A model generated the notes under the pieces. The model was not told the DNA's origin. It worked only from the letters and a program-made list of their open reading frames with translations, and ran no database searches. The translations under genes were made by a program, and so were the position numbers. From a virus: DNA of 20,054 nucleotides. The stretch is taken from the IMG/VR virus record IMGVR_UViG_3300035698_005006, positions 1-20,054 of that record; one strand, 5' to 3'. Shown piece after piece: positions 3-14,187 of the stretch. The stretch's first letter is position 1. Every line of letters starts with the position of its first letter.

Positions 3-119
3 GATGTTTTAGTTACGGGAATAAAAGAAATTAATTATGTAGGTAAAAAAGAGCTTATAGGATTTGGGCTAGATAAAGACCATTTATTTGTTGCGGGAGA
101 CTTTACCGTAACTCATAAC
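3..119 (+). mobile_element. Intein C-terminal end inserted at the TerL Walker A motif
   Basis: The 39 residues read from the window edge end with HLFVAGDFTVTHN followed by Ser. This is the classic intein C-terminal signature (block F/G: hydrophobic-VAGDF-TVTHN, terminal His-Asn, Ser at +1). The downstream extein continues SFKMSIM, so the insertion lies between Lys and Ser of the expected GKS P-loop, a known hot spot for inteins. The visible length is close to that of a free C-intein (the other one here has 38 residues), so this could also be a split intein whose start lies just upstream; no start codon is visible in this frame. Whether it carries an endonuclease cannot be seen. Confidence 0.88.
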
Positions 120-1778
120 AGTTTTAAGATGTCTATTATGACAACTTATTTTATTCATCTTCTTCTTTGTTTAGATAATCCTCAAAAATATCTTAGGCAG
201 GGAAAGTCTTCTAAGATAGCTATTATGAATATGTCTATTAATGCAAATAATGCAAAGAAAATTATTTTTTCAGAATTATCTTCTATGATAAATGATAATG
301 AATGGTTTAAATCTAAACCGTGGGAGCTTAAAGATTCCAGAATGCCTGACCCGATATGTCAATCAGAATTAAGATTTAAAGGAAATCTTTTTGTGATTCC
401 GGGTTCTGGACAATGGAGAACTGCGGTTGGTTATAATATTTTAGTAGGGATTATGGATGAAGCTGGTTCATATCGTAATACAGATAATTCAGACCAAGCG
501 GGGGAAATTTATGATGCTTTACAGCGTCGTATCGGTGGGAGGTTTGAAGATAAAGGAGCAGTTATTATAGGTGGTTCTCCTATGTATGAATTAGATTTTA
601 TTGAAAAGAAAATACATGAAGGAGAAAGTGAGACAAGTAAAGTATTAGCAAGGAGAAGAAATCTTTGGGATAGTAAGTATCCTAATTGGAGCGGAGAATA
701 TTTCTATGTTGATAAAACAGATAGAATAATATTAGAAAATCCTACTGAAGAACAAATAAGTAAAAAGGATATATTAAAAATCCCTGCTATACCTTTTCTA
801 TTCAAAGATTTTAGAGCCAATGTTACAAAAGCGTTAAGAGATTTTGGAGCGCATCCTTCAGCAAGTATAAATTCATTTTTCGAAACACCAAAAACTGTTA
901 TTCATAGAATTAATACAGAAAGAACGGAAGACCCTGTAAACCATGATGGAACGCTTAAGGATTGGGTTAAACCTATTATGCCTAATTCGTATCATTGTAT
1001 TCATGTTGACCTTGCTCTTACTGGATGTGCTTGTGGATTTGCACTAGGTCATTTTAACGGATTTGATGAAGAAGGTGCGGTACAAGTCTATATTGATTTA
1101 ATGATGAGGATAGAGGGCTCTAAGGAAAGCCCTATAAGGATAGGTAAGGTTAGAGATTATATTTATGCACTGACAGCTAGAGGGTTTAATATTAATTTGA
1201 TTACTTATGATGGATTTCAAAGTGTAGATTCAAGACAAATGTTAGAAGGCAAGGGATACAATACAGAACCTTTATCAGTTGATAGAACTATGGAGGCTTA
1301 TGCAGACTTAAAAGAATCTATTAATGAAGATAGGGTAGATTATTATTGTATAAGTCCGAACAATATGCCTTTAGAGGAAAGGCTAGGATTAAATAATAGT
1401 GAGTTGACAGCATCAGAAGTATTTGTTAAAGAGGCTATGAGGCTCGAAGAAATCGAAGGTAAGAAAGTAGACCACCCACCAAAAGGTTGCACAAGTGCTG
1501 ATACTGCAATACTTTACAACGACACTATAAAAGAGATTGGAGATATATCAGAAGAATCTTTCGAGGTTGTTAGCTATAAAGATGGGAAGTTTATTAAAAC
1601 AAAGGCTAAGAATGCTCGTATAACAAAATATGTAAACGAGCTAATAGAGGTAGAGTTTGAAGACGGAAGTATATTAAAGTGCACTCCAGAACATCCGATA
1701 TTATTAGATAATGAAGAATGGATACAGGCCCAGAGCCTTAAACCTAATGATAATATAAAATGTTTGACAAAGGTTTAG
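3..1778 (+). CDS. Terminase large subunit (TerL), main part, flanked by intein pieces; 5' end outside window
   Basis: This frame is open from base 3, so the first ATG at 129 is not a start. It encodes 39 residues of intein C-terminus (3-119), a 456-residue TerL segment (120-1487) and a 96-residue N-intein (1488-1775, stop TAG). TerL is the packaging motor ATPase and headful nuclease. Visible motifs are SFKMS directly after the intein (the last Ser of a Walker A GKS), Walker B GIMDEAG near 447-467, and GGSP as motif III. Two RNase H-like acidic motifs follow: HVDLALTG (Asp at 1008) and TYDGFQS (Asp at 1209). The third nuclease Asp is not in this polypeptide; it is encoded in the separate gene at 2472-2678 (KDVSDAVAG). 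A working enzyme therefore needs trans-splicing to G1487/S2586, plus splicing at the Walker A site. The TerL assignment is firm; the protein-splicing chemistry is inferred from motifs. Confidence 0.93.
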   Translation, partial: DVLVTGIKEINYVGKKELIGFGLDKDHLFVAGDFTVTHNSFKMSIMTTYFIHLLLCLDNPQKYLRQGKSSKIAIMNMSINANNAKKIIFSELSSMINDNEWFKSKPWELKDSRMPDPICQSELRFKGNLFVIPGSGQWRTAVGYNILVGIMDEAGSYRNTDNSDQAGEIYDALQRRIGGRFEDKGAVIIGGSPMYELDFIEKKIHEGESETSKVLARRRNLWDSKYPNWSGEYFYVDKTDRIILENPTEEQISKKDILKIPAIPFLFKDFRANVTKALRDFGAHPSASINSFFETPKTVIHRINTERTEDPVNHDGTLKDWVKPIMPNSYHCIHVDLALTGCACGFALGHFNGFDEEGAVQVYIDLMMRIEGSKESPIRIGKVRDYIYALTARGFNINLITYDGFQSVDSRQMLEGKGYNTEPLSVDRTMEAYADLKESINEDRVDYYCISPNNMPLEERLGLNNSELTASEVFVKEAMRLEEIEGKKVDHPPKGCTSADTAILYNDTIKEIGDISEESFEVVSYKDGKFIKTKAKNARITKYVNELIEVEFEDGSILKCTPEHPILLDNEEWIQAQSLKPNDNIKCLTKV

Positions 1779-1792
1779 GAGGGTGGTATAGC
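1764..1792 (+). promoter_or_regulatory. Promoter of the HNH-AP2 gene, leaderless position
   Basis: A perfect -35 TTGACA (1764-1769), a 17-base spacer ending in TGG, and -10 TATAGC (1787-1792) make an extended -10 promoter. The predicted start of transcription is at about 1798-1799, which is the ATG of the endonuclease gene (1798). The AGGAGGG at 1777-1783 lies inside the spacer and 14 bases from the ATG, so it is upstream of the transcript start and badly spaced for read-through mRNA. The promoter overlaps the stop codon of the N-intein gene. Confidence 0.55.
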
Positions 1793-1797
1793 TAGAT

Positions 1798-2478
1798 ATG
1801 AAAAAAATAAAACTAAATGGAAGAACTGATAAAGAAGCTTTAATAGATAACGAAGACTTTGACAAGATAAATAAATATAAATGGTATCCTAGAGCTCCAA
1901 ATAAGAATGTTACTTACGCTTATTGTAATATACATAGAAAGGGGTCATCTAAAAAAGATAAGAATCGAAACATAGGATTTTCGATGCATAGAATTATACT
2001 TGGACTTAAGAAAGGTGATGGAAAATACGTAGACCATAAAGACGGAAACGGATTAAATAATCAAAAATTTAATATGAGGGTTTGCTCTAATCAACAAAAT
2101 TGTTGGAATAGAAAAAATTATGAAGGATATTTAGGAGTAGCGAAATGTAAAGAAGATGGATTCTGGAGAACTAGAGTCGGTACTGTAGAATATGGACAAT
2201 ATAAAGACCCGAAAATAGCTGCAATGGTTTATGATAAAATAGTCAGAGAGCTCAGAGGTGAATTTGCTAGTTTAAATTTTCCTAATGAATACCTTCCCGA
2301 AAATTTTAAGATACCTAACTTTAATATATCTCCACAAAAGGCTAAAAAGCAATCTAGTATAACTGGAATAACGTGGCACAAAATAAAAAAGAAGTGGAGA
2401 ATAACAATAAAAGGGAAATCTTATGGATACTTTGACAATATAAAAGATGCCAAGACGAGAAAGGATGAGATATGTTGA
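1798..2478 (+). CDS. Free-standing HNH homing endonuclease with AP2 DNA-binding domain
   Basis: The protein has 226 residues. It starts like phage HNH_3/AP2 endonucleases (MKKIKLNGRTDKEALIDNED, then KWYPR). The HNH core is MHRIILG, then VDHKDGNGLNN and N-MRVCSNQQNCWNRK, near residues 63-103. An AP2-like domain follows (GYLGVAKCKEDGFWRTRV to GEFASLNFP, about 110-161), and a second shorter AP2-like unit is at the C-terminus (TGITWHKIKKKWRITIKGKS). The gene sits between the two halves of the TerL split intein and overlaps the C-intein gene by 7 bases. The expected role is cutting intein-free TerL genes to spread the split-intein cassette. It has its own promoter (1764-1792). The family assignment is firm; the target site is inferred from location. 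Confidence 0.88.
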   Translation: MKKIKLNGRTDKEALIDNEDFDKINKYKWYPRAPNKNVTYAYCNIHRKGSSKKDKNRNIGFSMHRIILGLKKGDGKYVDHKDGNGLNNQKFNMRVCSNQQNCWNRKNYEGYLGVAKCKEDGFWRTRVGTVEYGQYKDPKIAAMVYDKIVRELRGEFASLNFPNEYLPENFKIPNFNISPQKAKKQSSITGITWHKIKKKWRITIKGKSYGYFDNIKDAKTRKDEIC

Positions 2479-2678
2479 TAAAATCTATTAAAAGGATTAA
2501 ATTAGAAGAAGAGATTCCCGTCTATGACATTACTGTCCCCGAAACTGAAAATTTTTGCTTAGCGTCTGGAGTCGTGATTCATAACTCGAAAGATGTATCT
2601 GATGCAGTGGCGGGAGTGGTTAATACTATCATCACTCATAAAGACGAAATGGGACAAGTGGAGGTTTGGACATCTTGA
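2472..2678 (+). CDS. C-intein plus C-terminal 30 residues of TerL
   Basis: This 68-residue polypeptide starts at ATG 2472, with AAGGA six bases upstream, inside the end of the endonuclease gene, so its translation is probably coupled. Residues 1-38 are a C-intein ending GVVIHN. Residues 39-68 are TerL C-extein: SKDVSDAVAGVVNTIITHKD and a short tail. The Asp in KDVSDAVAG matches the third metal-binding acid of the TerL nuclease domain, which is absent from the upstream TerL gene. The small protein must associate with the N-intein at the end of the upstream polypeptide and splice in trans to finish TerL. Without the intein context this gene would look like an unknown short ORF. Confidence 0.88.
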   Translation: MLIKSIKRIKLEEEIPVYDITVPETENFCLASGVVIHNSKDVSDAVAGVVNTIITHKDEMGQVEVWTS

Positions 2679-8710: not shown

Positions 8711-10516
8711 ATGGAAAGAGAAAGTTTCGTTTTTAAATTAATCCAACCTGAAGGAGTTTACAGTTTAAGAGGAAAACAATATAATGCAGGACAAGAGTAC
8801 AGAGTCCCCGAAGATGTAGCTTATAAAGATGCTTTTTATTTAATTCAAGATGCAAAAAAAGCAGTAGCTATAACTGATATTAGTCAACCTAAACCAATAG
8901 AAAATAAAAAAGCAGATGAACAGCCTTTAATTCCTGTTTACACCAAACCCGAAATTCTTCAAATAGGTATTATTCGTATTGGTGGGCTAGGCGATGCTTT
9001 AATTATGAGTGGTTTAGTTCACGCAATCAAAAGAAAATATCCTAAAAGTTTTTTAACAGTTTATGTAAGAGATGATTTAGCGTCAAGAGTTCTTGCAGAT
9101 AATAAATATATTAATAGAGTCGTTAAAGCAAATAAAAAAATATGGAACACTTTAGTTCAAAGCATACTTGATAAAGGAATGTTTGATATTTTTTATGATA
9201 ATAGATATGTTACTAAAGTATCGTATCGTAATCAAAAAGATTTCGAGAAAGACAAAAAAGAAACAGACGAAGCTTTTGCTTCTTTTAAGATAGATGATTT
9301 ATTTAATAACTTTCCTTATATGAATAATGATTTTTATAAAAGAACAAAGATTAATGAATATGAATTAGCCTTGAAGTCCGCTTGTCTCGAAGGTTCCAGA
9401 GATGATTTATTTATTAAAATGAATATAGAAGATTATGCTTGTACCGATATTTTAGAAGACACTCCCTATGTTACCGTTCATCATGGAGCAGATGTTGGAA
9501 GACAGACTAAATGTTGGTTAATGGAATATTGGGAAAAGGTAGTAGATTATTTAAAAGAAGGTGGATATAAAGTAATTCAATTAGGTGTTCTAGGAGACGA
9601 GCCAATTAAAGGTTGTATTAATATGGCAGGGAAAACAAATATCAGACAAACTGCGGCCCTTATAGACCGTGCTAAATTTCATATAGACTCTGAATCTGGA
9701 TTAGTACATTTAGCTAGAGCGGTAAGAACAAGAAGTATAGTTTTGTTTGGACCTACAAGTTATGGACATTTTTCATATCCTGAAAATATAAATATTGAGA
9801 CACCTAATGAATGTAAAGATTGTTGGTGGAAAAATGATTTATGGTGGAGAGAATGCGGAGACGGCGGGACAGCATTTTCATCTTGTATGAAAGCTATCAC
9901 TCCAGAATTAGTTATTAATGAAATTAAATATATAAAATTTCCTGATGATTCTCCTTTAGTTAAAAGAGAAAGAAAAGAGCCAAAAGTTAAGAAAAATTTA
10001 AATGAAGAATTTGCAGAAGAATTATTATTAAATGAAGAGCATTATATAAGTGAGCCATGGCAATATGAGAGAGTAGAATTGATGATGAATAAATGTAAAA
10101 AGGGTGGAAAGATTCTCGAAGTAGGAGCAGGCGATGGTTATTGTGTTGAACAATTATTAAAGAGAGGATACGATATTGAAGGAGTAGAATTTTCTCCTCT
10201 TAGATATTCAAGATGCAAAAAGGCCGGGTTGCCAGTTCTACAGGGAGATATTCATTGTCTCCCTTTTCCAGACAATTATTTTGATACTGTTATGTGTGGT
10301 GAAGTTCTAGAGCATATTCCGTCAATGGCATTAGGTATGAAAGAACTTGAAAGAGTATGTAAACCAGATGGAAATATAATAGTTAGTGTTCCTATATCTG
10401 CGATACATGATAATACCAAAATGCACTTATGGGCGATTAGACATCATGTAATTAATAGAGAACAGAAACCAGATATGTTGATTTTAGATATGAAAAGGAT
10501 AAATAGAGATGAATAA
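8711..10516 (+). CDS. GT9-like glycosyltransferase fused to a SAM methyltransferase
   Basis: The protein has 601 residues in three parts. Residues 1-55 form a small unrecognised domain (FVFKLIQPEGVYSLRGKQYN) followed by a charged linker. Residues about 82-410 match ADP-heptose:LPS heptosyltransferase-type GT-B enzymes: RIGGLGDALIMSG (89-101) at the start and FHIDSESGLVHLARAV then VLFGPT near 322-346. Residues about 440-601 are a Methyltransf_11 domain with ILEVGAGDGY (motif I, near 467-476) and VMCGEVLEHIP (near 527-537). It probably transfers a heptose-like sugar and methylates it or a related residue. A first gene after the capsid terminator, it overlaps the next gene by eight bases. Sugar donor and acceptor cannot be deduced. 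Confidence 0.85.
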   Translation: MERESFVFKLIQPEGVYSLRGKQYNAGQEYRVPEDVAYKDAFYLIQDAKKAVAITDISQPKPIENKKADEQPLIPVYTKPEILQIGIIRIGGLGDALIMSGLVHAIKRKYPKSFLTVYVRDDLASRVLADNKYINRVVKANKKIWNTLVQSILDKGMFDIFYDNRYVTKVSYRNQKDFEKDKKETDEAFASFKIDDLFNNFPYMNNDFYKRTKINEYELALKSACLEGSRDDLFIKMNIEDYACTDILEDTPYVTVHHGADVGRQTKCWLMEYWEKVVDYLKEGGYKVIQLGVLGDEPIKGCINMAGKTNIRQTAALIDRAKFHIDSESGLVHLARAVRTRSIVLFGPTSYGHFSYPENINIETPNECKDCWWKNDLWWRECGDGGTAFSSCMKAITPELVINEIKYIKFPDDSPLVKRERKEPKVKKNLNEEFAEELLLNEEHYISEPWQYERVELMMNKCKKGGKILEVGAGDGYCVEQLLKRGYDIEGVEFSPLRYSRCKKAGLPVLQGDIHCLPFPDNYFDTVMCGEVLEHIPSMALGMKELERVCKPDGNIIVSVPISAIHDNTKMHLWAIRHHVINREQKPDMLILDMKRINRDE

Positions 10517-10793
10517 ACTTATAGAAAGAACATCACAAGACCCAAAGATGGATAAATTATATAAAAAAAGAATAAGGAAGGACCAGTCTATAATAACTTT
10601 AGATGGAAAAAAGGTGGTTGTAGACAACAATATGAAAAATTTATTAAAAGCTATGAATAAAGCAGGAATAAAAACGCTTTCTCATTGCGGAGGACACGGA
10701 AAGAATACTGCATTTATTCGTTTGGATTTAGGTCAAGTAAATATAGAAGTTGATTCTTTAGGGGTATTACTAAGATTCGATTACAAGAAATAA
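10509..10793 (+). CDS. Small SHCGGHG-motif protein, unknown function
   Basis: The 94-residue protein starts with an ATG overlapping the previous stop (eight bases) and AAGGA nine bases upstream. The core KNLLKAMNKAGIKTLSHCGGHGKNTAFIRLDL has H59-C60-G61-G62-H63-G64, which could bind a metal or act as a nucleophile site. Short proteins with a 'GIxTxxxCxGHG' core occur as unknown phage genes; the function is not known to me. The N-terminal 30 residues are strongly basic. Its place in the glycan gene run suggests co-expression but does not show its job. Confidence 0.6.
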   Translation: MNKLIERTSQDPKMDKLYKKRIRKDQSIITLDGKKVVVDNNMKNLLKAMNKAGIKTLSHCGGHGKNTAFIRLDLGQVNIEVDSLGVLLRFDYKK

Positions 10794-10812
10794 TGAATAG
10801 AAGGGAACTAAG

Positions 10813-11691
10813 ATGTTTGATGAAAATGTCAAGTTAAATCCTGTCCAGAATAGGCTCTGTATGGCGTTCTTTGTGTCGGGAGACATATACCCTTCATATA
10901 TCCCGTTCTTGCTCTACAGTCTGTTTAAGGCTTATCCTGAGTATTTCATCATTATATCTGTAAAAGGCACACTTTCGGACAAAATTAAGGTAAAAATCAA
11001 GGATTTAGGCCATAGAAGTAACTTTATTATAAAAGAAAATTTTGGAGACGAATTCGCAGAAGACCCTAACATTTGGAAGACTTTAAGATGGGTTCATATC
11101 CATCCAGAGTATTATAATTTTGAATATGTTTATATCGGAGATATAGATTATATTTTTACTAGAGAAGACATTCCTTTACTTGAAAGAAAAATTAAAATTT
11201 GTGAAATGGAAAACCTACCTTATGCAAATACAACTAAAGCAGATAATCCAGAGACTAGAGGATTAAGAATGACAGGTATACATTTTTATAAAGTTTCAGA
11301 ATATTTACCTGAGATGATTGAAGTAATGGAAAAATATAAAGAGCAATTAAAGAAGGGTATGCCAAAAATATTTTATAACAATAAATTAAAAAGATATGAT
11401 AACCAAATGGCATTAAGAATTATGATAGAAGAAGCAGAGTTAGGTATGCCAGAGTTTAATACTTTTGAATATAATGGACTACATATCGGTCATTCAAGGT
11501 GTAAAGGTAGATGGGAACAATTTCTAAAAGAGGATGGATTACATAGAGGATATATGAAATACTTTTTAGAGAATCTTGACACTCCAGAGTTTAGAAAATT
11601 ATATGAGTCCACTAGTAAACAAGTTTGGATGGAAATAAATAGAATGGTAAACGCTGGTTACGAATATTTTGGAGGAGTATTAGATGAATAA
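10813..11691 (+). CDS. GT-A-type glycosyltransferase with DID metal motif
   Basis: The 292-residue protein begins LCMAFFVSGDIYPSYIPFLL, a beta strand and helix typical of GT-A folds. FEYVYIGDIDYIF contains D110 and D112, the likely DxD metal and nucleotide-sugar site. Later come the HFYKVSEYLPEMI segment and YNGLHIGHSRCKGRW, resembling acceptor-side loops. It looks distantly like GT8/GT2-type enzymes; exact family and sugar are uncertain. The first ~40 codons use visibly more C/G than their surroundings, which may reflect recombination at this point. It overlaps the next gene by eight bases. Confidence 0.72.
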   Translation: MFDENVKLNPVQNRLCMAFFVSGDIYPSYIPFLLYSLFKAYPEYFIIISVKGTLSDKIKVKIKDLGHRSNFIIKENFGDEFAEDPNIWKTLRWVHIHPEYYNFEYVYIGDIDYIFTREDIPLLERKIKICEMENLPYANTTKADNPETRGLRMTGIHFYKVSEYLPEMIEVMEKYKEQLKKGMPKIFYNNKLKRYDNQMALRIMIEEAELGMPEFNTFEYNGLHIGHSRCKGRWEQFLKEDGLHRGYMKYFLENLDTPEFRKLYESTSKQVWMEINRMVNAGYEYFGGVLDE

Positions 11692-12343
11692 ATATTTAAA
11701 TGTGTTGGTTTTGTTTAGAAACAACGAAAAATTAGTTGCTCCTTATTTTTTCTTTTTAAGAAGAAGTACAAAGATTCCATTAAGAGTCTTTGCTTTAAAT
11801 AATGGGTCAGACGATAATACTTTAAAAGAGATTCAGAAATACAAAATGCCTCAAGATATTGCTTTAACTGTTCCAGAAAATGTAGGAACATCTAAAGGTA
11901 GAAATATCGTATTAAGAGAAATCTGGAAGCAAGAAGGTGGTTATTGTGACGTACTTTGTACTGATAGCGATATGTTTTTTATAAGAGAAAATAGTATTGA
12001 TAGGATGGTAGAAACCAATCTTCCAATGGTGTACGCTATGACATTAGCTTTTGACGATAATAGACAAGAAAGTGACGGAGGAATCTGGTGTGCATTATAT
12101 AAAAAACCAGTATGGGAATTAAACAAAGAATTTGATGAAGGTTATTATAATTATTATGATGATACAGATTTATTTGTGAACTCTTTAAAGCATGGATTAA
12201 AGGCTACAAAATGTCCTTTAGCTCAATGCCTACATATTTGGGGTTCAACGAATAGTACTGGAACAGAAGCCGAGACTCGTATGGTAGTTTTAGCTAAAGA
12301 TAAAGCTAGGATGGTAGAAAGATGGGGAGAAAAGTATGCTTAA
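11684..12343 (+). CDS. Glycosyltransferase family 2-like enzyme
   Basis: The protein has 219 residues. LNVLVLFRNN then VFALNNGSDDNTLKEIQ matches the GT2 start (VDNGSxDxT). NVGTSKGRN is the usual NxGxxxARN-type motif, and LCTDSDMFF holds D94 and D96 as the DxD motif. YDDTDLFVNSLKHGLK resembles the late GT2 ED-type motif. A soluble sugar transferase of the phage glycan set is the likely role. ATG 11684 overlaps the previous stop and has GGAGG upstream. Confidence 0.82.
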   Translation: MNKYLNVLVLFRNNEKLVAPYFFFLRRSTKIPLRVFALNNGSDDNTLKEIQKYKMPQDIALTVPENVGTSKGRNIVLREIWKQEGGYCDVLCTDSDMFFIRENSIDRMVETNLPMVYAMTLAFDDNRQESDGGIWCALYKKPVWELNKEFDEGYYNYYDDTDLFVNSLKHGLKATKCPLAQCLHIWGSTNSTGTEAETRMVVLAKDKARMVERWGEKYA

Positions 12344-12902
12344 TATAGATAAGTTTCATGAATTATTTCGGTGGAGACAATACGAACCCTCTCAAAATTA
12401 TTTTGAATTATGGACTTTAATAAAATATTTAGAAGTTTATTTCGAAAAAAATATAAATTCAGGAATTGAAGTTGGAACTTTTCATGACGGGACATTAAGA
12501 TTTTTTGCAGAGATATTAAATGAAGATGGATTCTTTATAAGCGTAGATTTAAATGATAGAGGATTTATCCCTGATTTAATAAAAGAATATGTTAATGATG
12601 ACAGAGTGAATTTTATAATAGGCGACAGTACGGCAGAGGAGACTCTTCGCTTAACAGAGGCTCGGTTACAAGATAGAAAAGTAGACTTTGTTTTTATTGA
12701 TGGAAACCATCAAGAAAAATATGTAACGGCAGATTTTGAAAATTATTCTAAGTATGTTAGAAGAAACGGATTAATTATTTTCCATGATATTGTTGGAGAA
12801 GAGCTTAATGCTTGTTGGGTTAAATTTAGAGAAGGTAAAAAATATATTGAAATTTATGGAGATGTAAACCCTTGTGGAATGGGAGTAATAATTAATGAGT
12901 GA
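12336..12902 (+). CDS. SAM-dependent methyltransferase, Methyltransf_24-like
   Basis: The protein has 188 residues. Motif I is SGIEVGTFHDGTLRFF (about 41-56), motif II has FISVDLNDR, and the acidic motif is VDFVFIDGNHQEKY (near 117-130), followed by NGLIIFHDIVG. This arrangement is typical of class I methyltransferases of the Methyltransf_24 type, often O-methyltransferases acting on sugars or small molecules. It overlaps both neighbours by eight bases, so translation is coupled. It is paralogous in outline to the genes at 12895 and 14178. Confidence 0.82.
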   Translation: MLNIDKFHELFRWRQYEPSQNYFELWTLIKYLEVYFEKNINSGIEVGTFHDGTLRFFAEILNEDGFFISVDLNDRGFIPDLIKEYVNDDRVNFIIGDSTAEETLRLTEARLQDRKVDFVFIDGNHQEKYVTADFENYSKYVRRNGLIIFHDIVGEELNACWVKFREGKKYIEIYGDVNPCGMGVIINE

Positions 12903-13512
12903 TATAGGGAAAAAGATTCATACAGAAGTACCAAACTTTGTTAATCCAAGTGAAGTAGATTATTTAATTGAAGCTTGTGAGCCTTTAGATAAAATAGCAG
13001 ACGTAATTAATGTTGGAGTCTATAAAGGATGTTCTGGTTGTGCTTTATTAGAAGGTATGAAAAAATATAGTATTACTGGAGTCTTACATTTAATCGATGT
13101 CTATAAACTAGTAGATAAGCCTCCTCCATTAAACAATGAAGGAATATCGGTAAGGTCAAGAGACGATATTGAATGGACTGATAGTTTTTTTGAAGAAGCT
13201 AAAAGGAATGTTTTACGTTTTAATAGTAATCAAAGAATTAATATGTATCAAGAGTATTCAGATGATGTTAATATAAATAAAAAAATTGCTCAAGCTTCTC
13301 TTATTTTTATTGACGGAGACCACTCTACACAAGGAGCTTTATTAGATATTTTAAAATATTCACAGATAATTATTAAAGGTGGATATATTTTAATGCACGA
13401 TTCACAATTCCCAACTGTAGATAAAGCTATAGAAATCTTTTTAAGTATTAGAGAAGACTTTGAAGTTGTAGATAAATTTAATACAATAAAGAAAATTAGG
13501 AGGAAAATTTGA
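12895..13512 (+). CDS. SAM-dependent methyltransferase, Methyltransf_24-like (paralog)
   Basis: The protein has 205 residues. ADVINVGVYKGCSGCALLEG (about 34-53) is motif I, VLHLIDVYKL gives the ribose-binding acid, ASLIFIDGDHSTQGALLD (near 133-150) is the acidic motif, and GGYILMHDSQFPTV follows. The order and spacing match the other Methyltransf_24-like enzymes of this cluster. GGGAG precedes ATG 12895. Its end carries AGGAGG for the TTG-started gene that follows. Confidence 0.8.
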   Translation: MSDIGKKIHTEVPNFVNPSEVDYLIEACEPLDKIADVINVGVYKGCSGCALLEGMKKYSITGVLHLIDVYKLVDKPPPLNNEGISVRSRDDIEWTDSFFEEAKRNVLRFNSNQRINMYQEYSDDVNINKKIAQASLIFIDGDHSTQGALLDILKYSQIIIKGGYILMHDSQFPTVDKAIEIFLSIREDFEVVDKFNTIKKIRRKI

Positions 13513-13799
13513 TAGACAGGAAAAGCTTTTCTCATTTAATAATGGATTCATGTCAGAACGTTCCAGAGTTTTGGCATTTCATAAAATTTCTACAAGCTCA
13601 TAAGGAGAACTACGACAATATTTTAGAGCTTGGATGTTTTAAGGGCGGAAGTGTAAGAAGATTTATCGAAACAATATCTGATAGCTATGCTATGGATGGA
13701 GATTTTGATTTTAGAATTCAAATAGATGGAAGTAAATGGAAAGGGCATTGTGGAATAACTGCTTTCATTAAAGGAGATTTAGATGAACATAAAGGTTAA
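13509..13799 (+). CDS. Truncated methyltransferase (N-terminal part only)
   Basis: The 96-residue protein is read from TTG 13509, with AGGAGG (13498-13503) five bases upstream; the TTG overlaps the previous stop (TTGA). DNILELGCFKGGSVRRF (about 36-52) is a clear SAM-binding motif I. The protein ends just after FIKGDLDEHKG, before the 'DFIFIDGDH'-type acidic motif that its neighbours have. It lacks half of the Rossmann fold and probably cannot methylate alone. A deletion that joined it to the next gene start is the simplest explanation; a short regulatory or partner role is possible. Confidence 0.6.
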   Translation: MIDRKSFSHLIMDSCQNVPEFWHFIKFLQAHKENYDNILELGCFKGGSVRRFIETISDSYAMDGDFDFRIQIDGSKWKGHCGITAFIKGDLDEHKG

Positions 13800-14187
13800 G
13801 CACCCAGACGATAATTGGATATTAGGTAATTGGGGAAGAGAGATTCAGAAAAGGATGCCACAAGCAGATGGTAGGCTTATAAGATTTTATGTTCAGTATA
13901 ATATGTTTACAAAAAGAGAAAATCCAGAGGATATTAATGTAGTTTATTTTACTCACGATAATAAAGATGGAATATTTGAAAGAACAGCATTACAAGCAGA
14001 TTTTTGTATTTGTCAAGCTCCTCAGTACGAAAGATTTTTACGTTCAAAAGGTATTAAAAATGTATGCACTATTCCTTGTCCTCCTCCCGAAATAGATATG
14101 TTTAAACCTAAATTAATGTTAGCCTGGATAGGACACTTCTTTTCTCCGTTTAGAAAAGGACAAAAAGGGAGCATAACGTGGAATTAG
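13783..14187 (+). CDS. Truncated GT-B glycosyltransferase, N-terminal domain only
   Basis: The protein has 134 residues. AAAGGAG precedes ATG 13783, which overlaps the previous gene by 17 bases. It reads like the N-domain of a GT4-type enzyme: HPDDNWILGNWGREIQKRMP, NVVYFTHDN, ADFCICQAPQYERFLRSKG, then PPPEIDMFKPK and LMLAWIGHFFSPFRKG. In full enzymes the RKG motif opens the C-terminal, donor-binding domain; here the protein stops nine residues later. The nucleotide-sugar site is therefore missing. The gene looks like the survivor of a deletion, though a two-protein enzyme cannot be excluded. Confidence 0.55.
   Translation: MNIKVKHPDDNWILGNWGREIQKRMPQADGRLIRFYVQYNMFTKRENPEDINVVYFTHDNKDGIFERTALQADFCICQAPQYERFLRSKGIKNVCTIPCPPPEIDMFKPKLMLAWIGHFFSPFRKGQKGSITWN

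What the first reader, a model, noticed from the sequence alone, without database searches (positions are those of the whole stretch)
1488..2678. TerL is a fractured gene: split intein with an HNH-AP2 endonuclease gene between the halves
Seen directly: an N-intein (Cys1, block B CTPEHPILL) ends in a stop; an HNH-AP2 gene follows; then a 68-residue gene has a C-intein ending HN-Ser and 30 residues with the last TerL catalytic Asp. The exteins join cleanly as HPPKG-SKDVSDAVAG. Known: fractured genes with split inteins were described in phage metagenomes, where the intervening endonuclease was typically of a Vsr-like (EDxHD) family. An HNH-AP2 enzyme in that place, and TerL nuclease as host, make this cassette unusual. 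It would be an efficient new trans-splicing pair with a short 38-residue C part.
Basis: partly seen in the sequence, partly recalled or inferred. Interest (0 to 1): 0.85.

Follow-up and report, generated by a model that had tools for sequence, protein, structure and literature searches.

The report
Mobile split intein in phage terminase
A phage's DNA-packaging enzyme is encoded in two separate pieces that a split, self-splicing protein (intein) should join, with a DNA-cutting "homing" gene between them; relatives show that this whole cassette is a single lineage that has jumped between unrelated phages and then lost its cutter or drifted apart, a natural record of how split inteins arise and spread.

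Summary
TerL is interrupted by an N-intein (1488-1775), a free-standing HNH-AP2 endonuclease gene (1798-2478) and a separate 68-codon gene carrying a 38-residue C-intein plus the last 30 TerL residues. Five close intein-free TerLs (54-62% identical) read DHPPKG-SKDV[AS]DA straight through, so the G|S junction is exact.

IMG/VR holds about ten further fractured TerLs at this same site. Their split points are homologous and their inteins form one clade (96/82 without split-adjacent columns). The endonucleases also form one clade (95/93). Their TerL hosts do not (AU p=4e-29). So the cassette has moved as a unit between unrelated TerLs. It then decays: the endonuclease is intact in five loci; deleted inside, truncated or gone in four lineages; replaced in one; and in one phage the halves lie 5.7 kb apart with no HNH gene between them.

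Fractured genes, split TerL inteins, nuclease-domain TerL inteins and an HNH gene between PolB intein halves are already known. New, as far as I could search, are this site, the HNH-AP2 partner, and the mobile, decaying lineage. Splicing and homing remain untested.

The parts
3..119 (+). C-terminal end of TerL intein 1 (in cis, P-loop site GSGK|S; LAGLIDADG type in the full-length copies), cut by the contig start; +1 Ser at 120
   Evidence: Ends VTHN|SFKMS; full copy in L002 (Cys1 at L002:1868, +1 Ser at L002:2909) and L003; intein-free at this site in L089, GSGKSFKIS
120..1487 (+). TerL N-extein (ATPase and most of the nuclease domain), ends HPPKG
   Evidence: 31-34% identity to isolate phage TerLs, 54-62% to IMG/VR TerLs
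1488..1775 (+). N-half of the split intein, 96 aa, Cys1, block B CTPEHPILL; stop codon 1776-1778
   Evidence: NCBIfam TIGR01445 36.6 bits, above cut-off; stop position homologous in the fractured relatives
1777..1782 (+). AGGAGG, possible ribosome binding site of the endonuclease gene, overlapping the N-half stop codon
   Evidence: sequence itself
1798..2478 (+). Free-standing HNH-AP2 homing endonuclease gene, 226 aa: HNH_3 (residues 64-101) and two AP2-like units (about 109-160 and 187-225)
   Evidence: Pfam HNH_3 24.5 bits (cut-off 24.8) in the window, matched in 5 of 5 homologues, best 1e-8; PHROG 99 E=1e-26; PDB profile hits AP2 WRI1 3.6e-13 and HNH homing endonuclease 1u3e 4.7e-5; AF2 model hits AP2 1gcc, TM 0.77 normalised by the target
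1921..2317 (+). 397-bp stretch, holding the HNH core, that is deleted (with frameshift) in the near-identical loci L002 and L003
   Evidence: alignment; gap 708 against 311 nt
2472..2478 (+). Overlap of C-half start codon (ATG) and endonuclease stop codon (TGA): ATGTTGA; upstream AAAGGA as possible Shine-Dalgarno
   Evidence: sequence; overlap of 4-23 nt also in L020, L031, L040, L035
2472..2585 (+). C-half of the split intein, 38 aa (MLIKSIKRI...VVIHN)
   Evidence: NCBIfam TIGR01443 32.5 bits, above cut-off; initiator at homologous position in the fractured relatives
2586..2678 (+). TerL C-extein, 30 aa, SKDVSDA... with the last nuclease Asp motif, and stop
   Evidence: gapless junction with intein-free TerLs

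Best explanation
The TerL gene carries a naturally split intein (class-1 residues) whose halves are made as separate proteins: TerL up to HPPKG fused to IntN, and IntC fused to SKDV.... The halves associate and trans-splice to restore TerL, including its last nuclease Asp motif. The gene between them encodes a homing endonuclease (HNH nuclease plus two AP2-like DNA-binding units) that is expected to cut intein-free TerL alleles near the codons for G-SKDVxDA, so that repair copies N-half, endonuclease and C-half as one cassette. Relatives show that this cassette arose once at this site and has moved between unrelated phage TerLs. After homing the endonuclease erodes or is replaced, but the split intein stays because TerL depends on it; once the endonuclease is gone the halves can even move apart. 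Shown from sequence: anatomy, exact junction, common origin of the fracture, horizontal transfer, endonuclease decay. Inferred: trans-splicing activity, cleavage site and homing.
For: Intein motifs and complementary halves. Exact G|S junction in nine intein-free TerLs. HNH and AP2 both supported. Halves 100% conserved in L002/L003 although the endonuclease has a 397-bp frameshifting deletion; other erosion states in L032, L056, L062, replacement in L016, halves 5.7 kb apart in L074 with ThyX and small genes but no HNH gene between, where only splicing in trans can give full-length TerL. Fractured inteins one group, 96/94 for 9 of 10 with the tenth not rejected, 96/82 without split-adjacent columns and without L062. 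Endonucleases one clade, 95/93, against 11 free-standing phage HNH-AP2 genes. TerL hosts not one clade, AU p=4e-29, and the intein data reject the TerL groupings, p=3e-7, 6e-8 and 5e-4. C-half N-terminus basic (+2 to +4 in the first 12 residues in 8 of 9), unlike the equivalent stretch of contiguous relatives (-5 to +1).
Against: No splicing, cleavage or homing was measured. The L002 and L003 deletions are probably one event. The intein tree rests on 113-135 columns and single inner branches are weak. L062 has only a partial N-half and its place is open. The homing target is inferred only from the insertion point. The basic C-half may be shared ancestry rather than adaptation.
Confidence: 0.85

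Rival explanations
1. The intein is not split in function: ribosomal frameshifting or stop readthrough joins the N-half, endonuclease and C-half into one precursor that splices in cis.
For: N- and C-halves lie in the same frame (1488 and 2472 are both 0 mod 3); C-half start overlaps the endonuclease stop.
Against: The endonuclease has its own ATG and a possible RBS; a stop lies between the N-half and it, and it is in another frame. In L074 the halves are 5.7 kb apart, and in L062 and L056 separate initiators remain after endonuclease loss.
Confidence: 0.05
2. TerL is a decaying or dead gene: the stop and the endonuclease insertion broke it, and the phage uses another terminase or is defective.
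For: The contig is a fragment, so another TerL cannot be excluded.
Against: Both halves are intact and 100% conserved in L002/L003 while the endonuclease decays; motif residues are kept in all fractured relatives over long branches; the portal gene follows directly.
Confidence: 0.04
3. Fractures arose many times independently by HNH-AP2 genes landing in contiguous inteins at the canonical endonuclease site; the lineage is not one mobile cassette.
For: Hosts are scattered over at least five places of the TerL tree; L056 and L062 sit near the contiguous inteins in one or other tree; isolates CL2 and BL3 seem to show separate fractures at a neighbouring site with another HNH type.
Against: Homologous stop and start positions, fractured inteins one supported group, endonucleases one clade.
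Confidence: 0.15
4. A group I or II intron, not an intein, interrupts TerL.
For: Intron-borne HNH genes are common in phages.
Against: The interruption is flanked on both sides by translated intein halves with Cys1 and HN|S, which have homologues in contiguous in-frame inteins at the same site. No RNA-family search was run.
Confidence: 0.01

Closest known systems
Fractured genes with split inteins and a free-standing endonuclease (Dassa et al. 2009, NAR 37:2560; known here through citing papers, full text not held)
   Same: Host gene in two pieces, each with half an intein, and an endonuclease gene between them; phage/metagenome setting
   Different: Endonuclease there is the EDxHD (Vsr-like) family (own knowledge); here HNH-AP2. 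Here the host site is the TerL nuclease motif, and a lineage with decay states and host jumps is visible
Atypical split TerL inteins AceL-TerL, GOS-TerL, Cat-TerL (PMC11766414)
   Same: Naturally split intein in TerL
   Different: Those are 25/104, 37/115 and 30/104 residues with +1 Cys; here 96/38 with +1 Ser, split at the canonical endonuclease site. Their TerL insertion sites could not be compared here
PolB split intein with HNH gene in Pseudomonas phage MIJ3 (PMC6892783)
   Same: HNH homing endonuclease gene lies between the two halves of a split intein
   Different: Host is DNA polymerase B; no AP2 unit or wider lineage described in the passages read
Contiguous TerL inteins (mycobacteriophages PMC5050341; Mic1 PMC7156551; the contiguous loci)
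   Same: TerL as frequent intein host; the loci sit at exactly this site
   Different: Mycobacteriophage sites are all in the ATPase domain; Mic1 has a nuclease-domain intein with Thr/Cys at the extein boundaries; the contiguous relatives at this site are mini-inteins or carry nested HNH of another kind
IPA-HNH (HNH plus AP2) homing endonucleases (PMC10448857; Magnani et al. 2004, cited there)
   Same: N-terminal HNH, C-terminal AP2 architecture
   Different: Described there in phage genomes without a split-intein setting; here the gene sits between split-intein halves, with two AP2-like units

Membership tests
Intein (class 1 splicing) | Cys/Ser at intein position 1 and block A | tested here: met
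   Cys1 at 1488; TIGR01445 36.6 bits above cut-off 24.5
Intein (class 1 splicing) | Block B TxxH | tested here: met
   CTPEHPILL, conserved in the fractured relatives
Intein (class 1 splicing) | C-terminal HN and +1 Cys/Ser/Thr | tested here: met
   VVIHN|S; TIGR01443 32.5 bits above cut-off 15.6
Intein (class 1 splicing) | Precise absence in intein-free alleles | tested here: met
   nine intein-free TerLs, gapless junction
Intein (class 1 splicing) | Splicing activity | not testable with these tools
   needs expression
Fractured gene | Two separate ORFs, each extein part fused to an intein half | tested here: met
Fractured gene | Endonuclease ORF between the halves | tested here: met
   1798-2478 HNH-AP2
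Fractured gene | EDxHD (Vsr-like) endonuclease (typical of the 2009 set, not taken as strictly defining) | tested here: not met
   matches HNH_3, PHROG 99, AP2 structures and HNH endonuclease 1u3e instead
HNH-AP2 (IPA-HNH type) homing endonuclease | HNH domain | tested here: met
   HNH_3 in all 5 intact homologues, best E=1e-8; window 24.5 bits, just under cut-off 24.8; 1u3e 4.7e-5
HNH-AP2 (IPA-HNH type) homing endonuclease | C-terminal AP2 domain | tested here: met
   PDB profile search WRI1 3.6e-13, Foldseek 1gcc TM 0.77 by target, E 1.3e-2; Pfam did not report AP2
HNH-AP2 (IPA-HNH type) homing endonuclease | Site-specific cleavage of the empty allele | not testable with these tools
   needs an enzyme assay
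AceL/GOS-TerL atypical split inteins | Split after 25-37 residues, +1 Cys | tested here: not met
   96/38 split, +1 Ser (against the table in PMC11766414)

The most novel reading that the evidence does not exclude
A single fractured-intein lineage, carried by its own HNH-AP2 homing endonuclease, has spread between distantly related phage terminases as a three-gene cassette. It passes through a visible sequence: intact cassette, endonuclease decay or replacement, and dispersal of the two halves to distant places. This would be a direct natural series from homing-driven fracture to dispersed split inteins of the cyanobacterial DnaE kind.
Probability: 0.65. Interest if true: 0.75.

Novelty: new variant of a known kind. 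Interest (0 to 1): 0.62.

Why it matters
Split inteins are major tools, yet how they arise, spread and become permanent is little documented. Here one lineage shows intact, eroded, replaced and dispersed states at one site, so the path from a homing cassette to a stable split intein can be tested with natural alleles, including near-identical phages with and without a whole endonuclease and close empty-site relatives. It also offers several new intein pairs (about 96/38, Ser+1, short and often basic C parts), and shows an essential packaging nuclease held hostage at its last catalytic motif.

Tried and rejected
Single-sequence searches in IMG/VR found only L002, L003 and one unrelated intein. 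An alignment of six endonucleases and fragments had no stretch conserved enough to search with. The DNA pattern in bacterial genomes gave two hits without an intein (L053 is an unrelated ORF; L054 lies in a contig of the same length as that of the intein-free L047). L015 first looked fractured but is a contiguous intein read through in-frame TGA codons. L039, L045, L047, L053 and L060 match the pattern without an intein. Pfam did not report AP2; PDB profile and fold searches did. RNA folding found no hairpin over the endonuclease start in the window, but a strong one in L016. Monophyly of the fractured inteins was re-tested without split-adjacent columns because those could bias the tree. Intron, frameshift and dead-gene readings were considered and rejected (see rivals). 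The Dassa 2009 paper and a 2020 PNAS paper are not held, so earlier mention of this exact arrangement cannot be excluded.

Full report
What is there. The window is the whole of a 20,054-bp IMG/VR viral contig. TerL opens the contig. An ORF from base 3 to 1778 holds the end of a first, in-cis intein (ends VTHN|SFKMS at 119/120), the TerL N-extein, and from 1488 a 96-residue N-intein that ends at TAG 1776-1778. An HNH-AP2 gene follows at 1798-2478. A 68-codon gene at 2472-2678 encodes a 38-residue C-intein ending HN and 30 residues of TerL from Ser. Both splicing regions pass the NCBIfam cut-offs. The portal gene follows at 2735.

Junction. Against four isolate phage TerLs (31-34% identity) the joined protein aligns without a gap at DHPxxG-SKDVxDA. 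Five closer IMG/VR TerLs without this intein (54-62% identity) read GKK[IV]DHPPKGSKDV[AS]DA through the site. The same relatives show TerL to be an intein hot spot: L089 is empty at the P-loop site, while L090, L091 and L093 end a different intein just before SISEKNAR or its equivalent.

The endonuclease. HNH_3 is found in all five intact homologues; PHROG 99 matches at 1e-26. A profile of five homologues finds AP2 transcription factors (3.6e-13) and an HNH homing endonuclease, 1u3e (4.7e-5), in the PDB. The AlphaFold model (mean pLDDT 75, pTM 0.44) has two strand-strand-strand-helix units at the C-end, and its eight best PDB matches are all AP2 domains. Free-standing relatives sit in many phage genomes, for example between helicase and primase of Bacillus phage Stahl.

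Same site elsewhere. Two DNA patterns for HN-[STC]-KD[VI]-x-DA gave 48 stretches, most of them inteins at this TerL site. Most are contiguous: mini-inteins or inteins with nested HNH of another kind. Fractured ones are the window, L002/L003, L016, L020, L031, L032, L056, L062, and, after fetching more of the contigs, L066 (contig of L040), L067 (of L035) and L074 (of L055). The N-halves stop and the C-halves start at homologous places. In the five loci with an intact endonuclease its stop overlaps the C-half start by 4-23 nt, which suggests coupled translation.

Fate of the endonuclease. Intact: window, L020, L031, L066, L067. Deleted inside: L002 and L003 lack exactly 397 bp (window 1921-2317), with frameshift, while the intein halves are 100% identical. 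Remnants: L032 keeps AP2 pieces only; L056 keeps 47 N-terminal codons. Gone: L062, about 60 nt between the halves, with a GAGGAG and a TTG start for the C-half. Replaced: L016 has a different gene, without a Pfam match, whose start lies in a strong hairpin. Dispersed: in L074 the halves are 5.7 kb apart on one strand, with the thymidylate synthase ThyX and small genes but no HNH gene between. There, full-length TerL can only come from splicing in trans.

One lineage, several hosts. In a tree of N plus C inteins the fractured ones form one group, 96/94 for nine of ten, and placing all ten together is not rejected, p=0.44. Without split-adjacent columns and without L062 the support is 96/82. The endonucleases form one clade, 95/93, against eleven free-standing phage genes. 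The TerL exteins do not: one clade is rejected at p=4e-29 and at least five changes are needed. The intein data in turn reject the TerL groupings: p=3e-7 for the L032/L066/L067/L074/L010/L024 group, 6e-8 for window with L021/L041, 5e-4 for L056 with L057. The simplest reading is one fracture, then transfer of the whole cassette between unrelated TerLs, as homing by the HNH-AP2 enzyme would do.

Function. Trans-splicing follows from established intein chemistry (Cys1, TxxH, HN, +1 Ser) and from the L074 arrangement, but is not measured. The first 12 residues of the C-half are basic in eight of nine fractured inteins (+2 to +4), against -5 to +1 in contiguous ones; this fits electrostatic capture between halves but may simply be inherited.

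Compared with what is known. Fractured genes are known (Dassa 2009, seen only through citing papers). Split TerL inteins are known, but split atypically (25-37 / 104-115) with +1 Cys. An HNH gene between split-intein halves is known in PolB of MIJ3. Mycobacteriophage TerL inteins all lie in the ATPase domain; Mic1 has one in the nuclease domain. HNH-AP2 homing genes are known in phages. I found no paper with HNH-AP2 in a split intein, but most subscription papers are not searchable here. I therefore call it a new variant of a known kind.

Noticed in passing
L002:1783-2909 and L003:206-1332 (TerL intein 1, P-loop site): L002 and L003 differ at 21 positions in the roughly 85 nt of aligned extein upstream of intein 1 (last mismatch 16 nt before Cys1) and did not align further up by blastn, yet show one mismatch in the aligned 3.7 kb from there on. 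This looks like recent homing of the LAGLIDADG intein with one-sided co-conversion, though a chimeric assembly is possible.
   Followed up: partly
L074:940-9836: TerL halves 5.7 kb apart with ThyX and small genes between them: a dispersed split TerL.
   Followed up: yes
L076:506-2771 (Lactobacillus phage CL2) and L077:727-2607 (Brochothrix phage BL3): Isolate phages seem to have unrecognised fractured TerLs at a neighbouring nuclease-motif site (for example HDH|C...HN|CMDATRY), with a zinc-finger HNH gene (CL2) or its remnant (BL3). In CL2 the C-half has no obvious start codon near its beginning.
   Followed up: partly
window 19024-20052: Third intein of the contig: N-part with Cys1 after HEWL and a LAGLIDADG-like motif (LYLAEGH) in a gene cut by the contig end.
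   Followed up: no
window 17471-18319: A further free-standing HNH endonuclease gene (HNH_3, 41 bits, above cut-off).
   Followed up: no
window 8711-16473: Cluster of glycosyltransferase- and methyltransferase-like genes next to the structural genes, perhaps for virion or host glycan modification.
   Followed up: no
L015/L065 (contig IMGVR_UViG_3300035698_017699): TerL intein read through five in-frame TGA codons, suggesting a phage with TGA recoded.
   Followed up: partly
L016:2415-2485: The start of the replacement gene lies in a 12-bp hairpin that hides GGAGAG (-24.2 kcal/mol, z -2.3), which may regulate its translation.
   Followed up: partly
L090, L091, L093: A third TerL intein site, just before SISEKNAR/SVSASNAS, in close relatives of the window TerL.
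   Followed up: no
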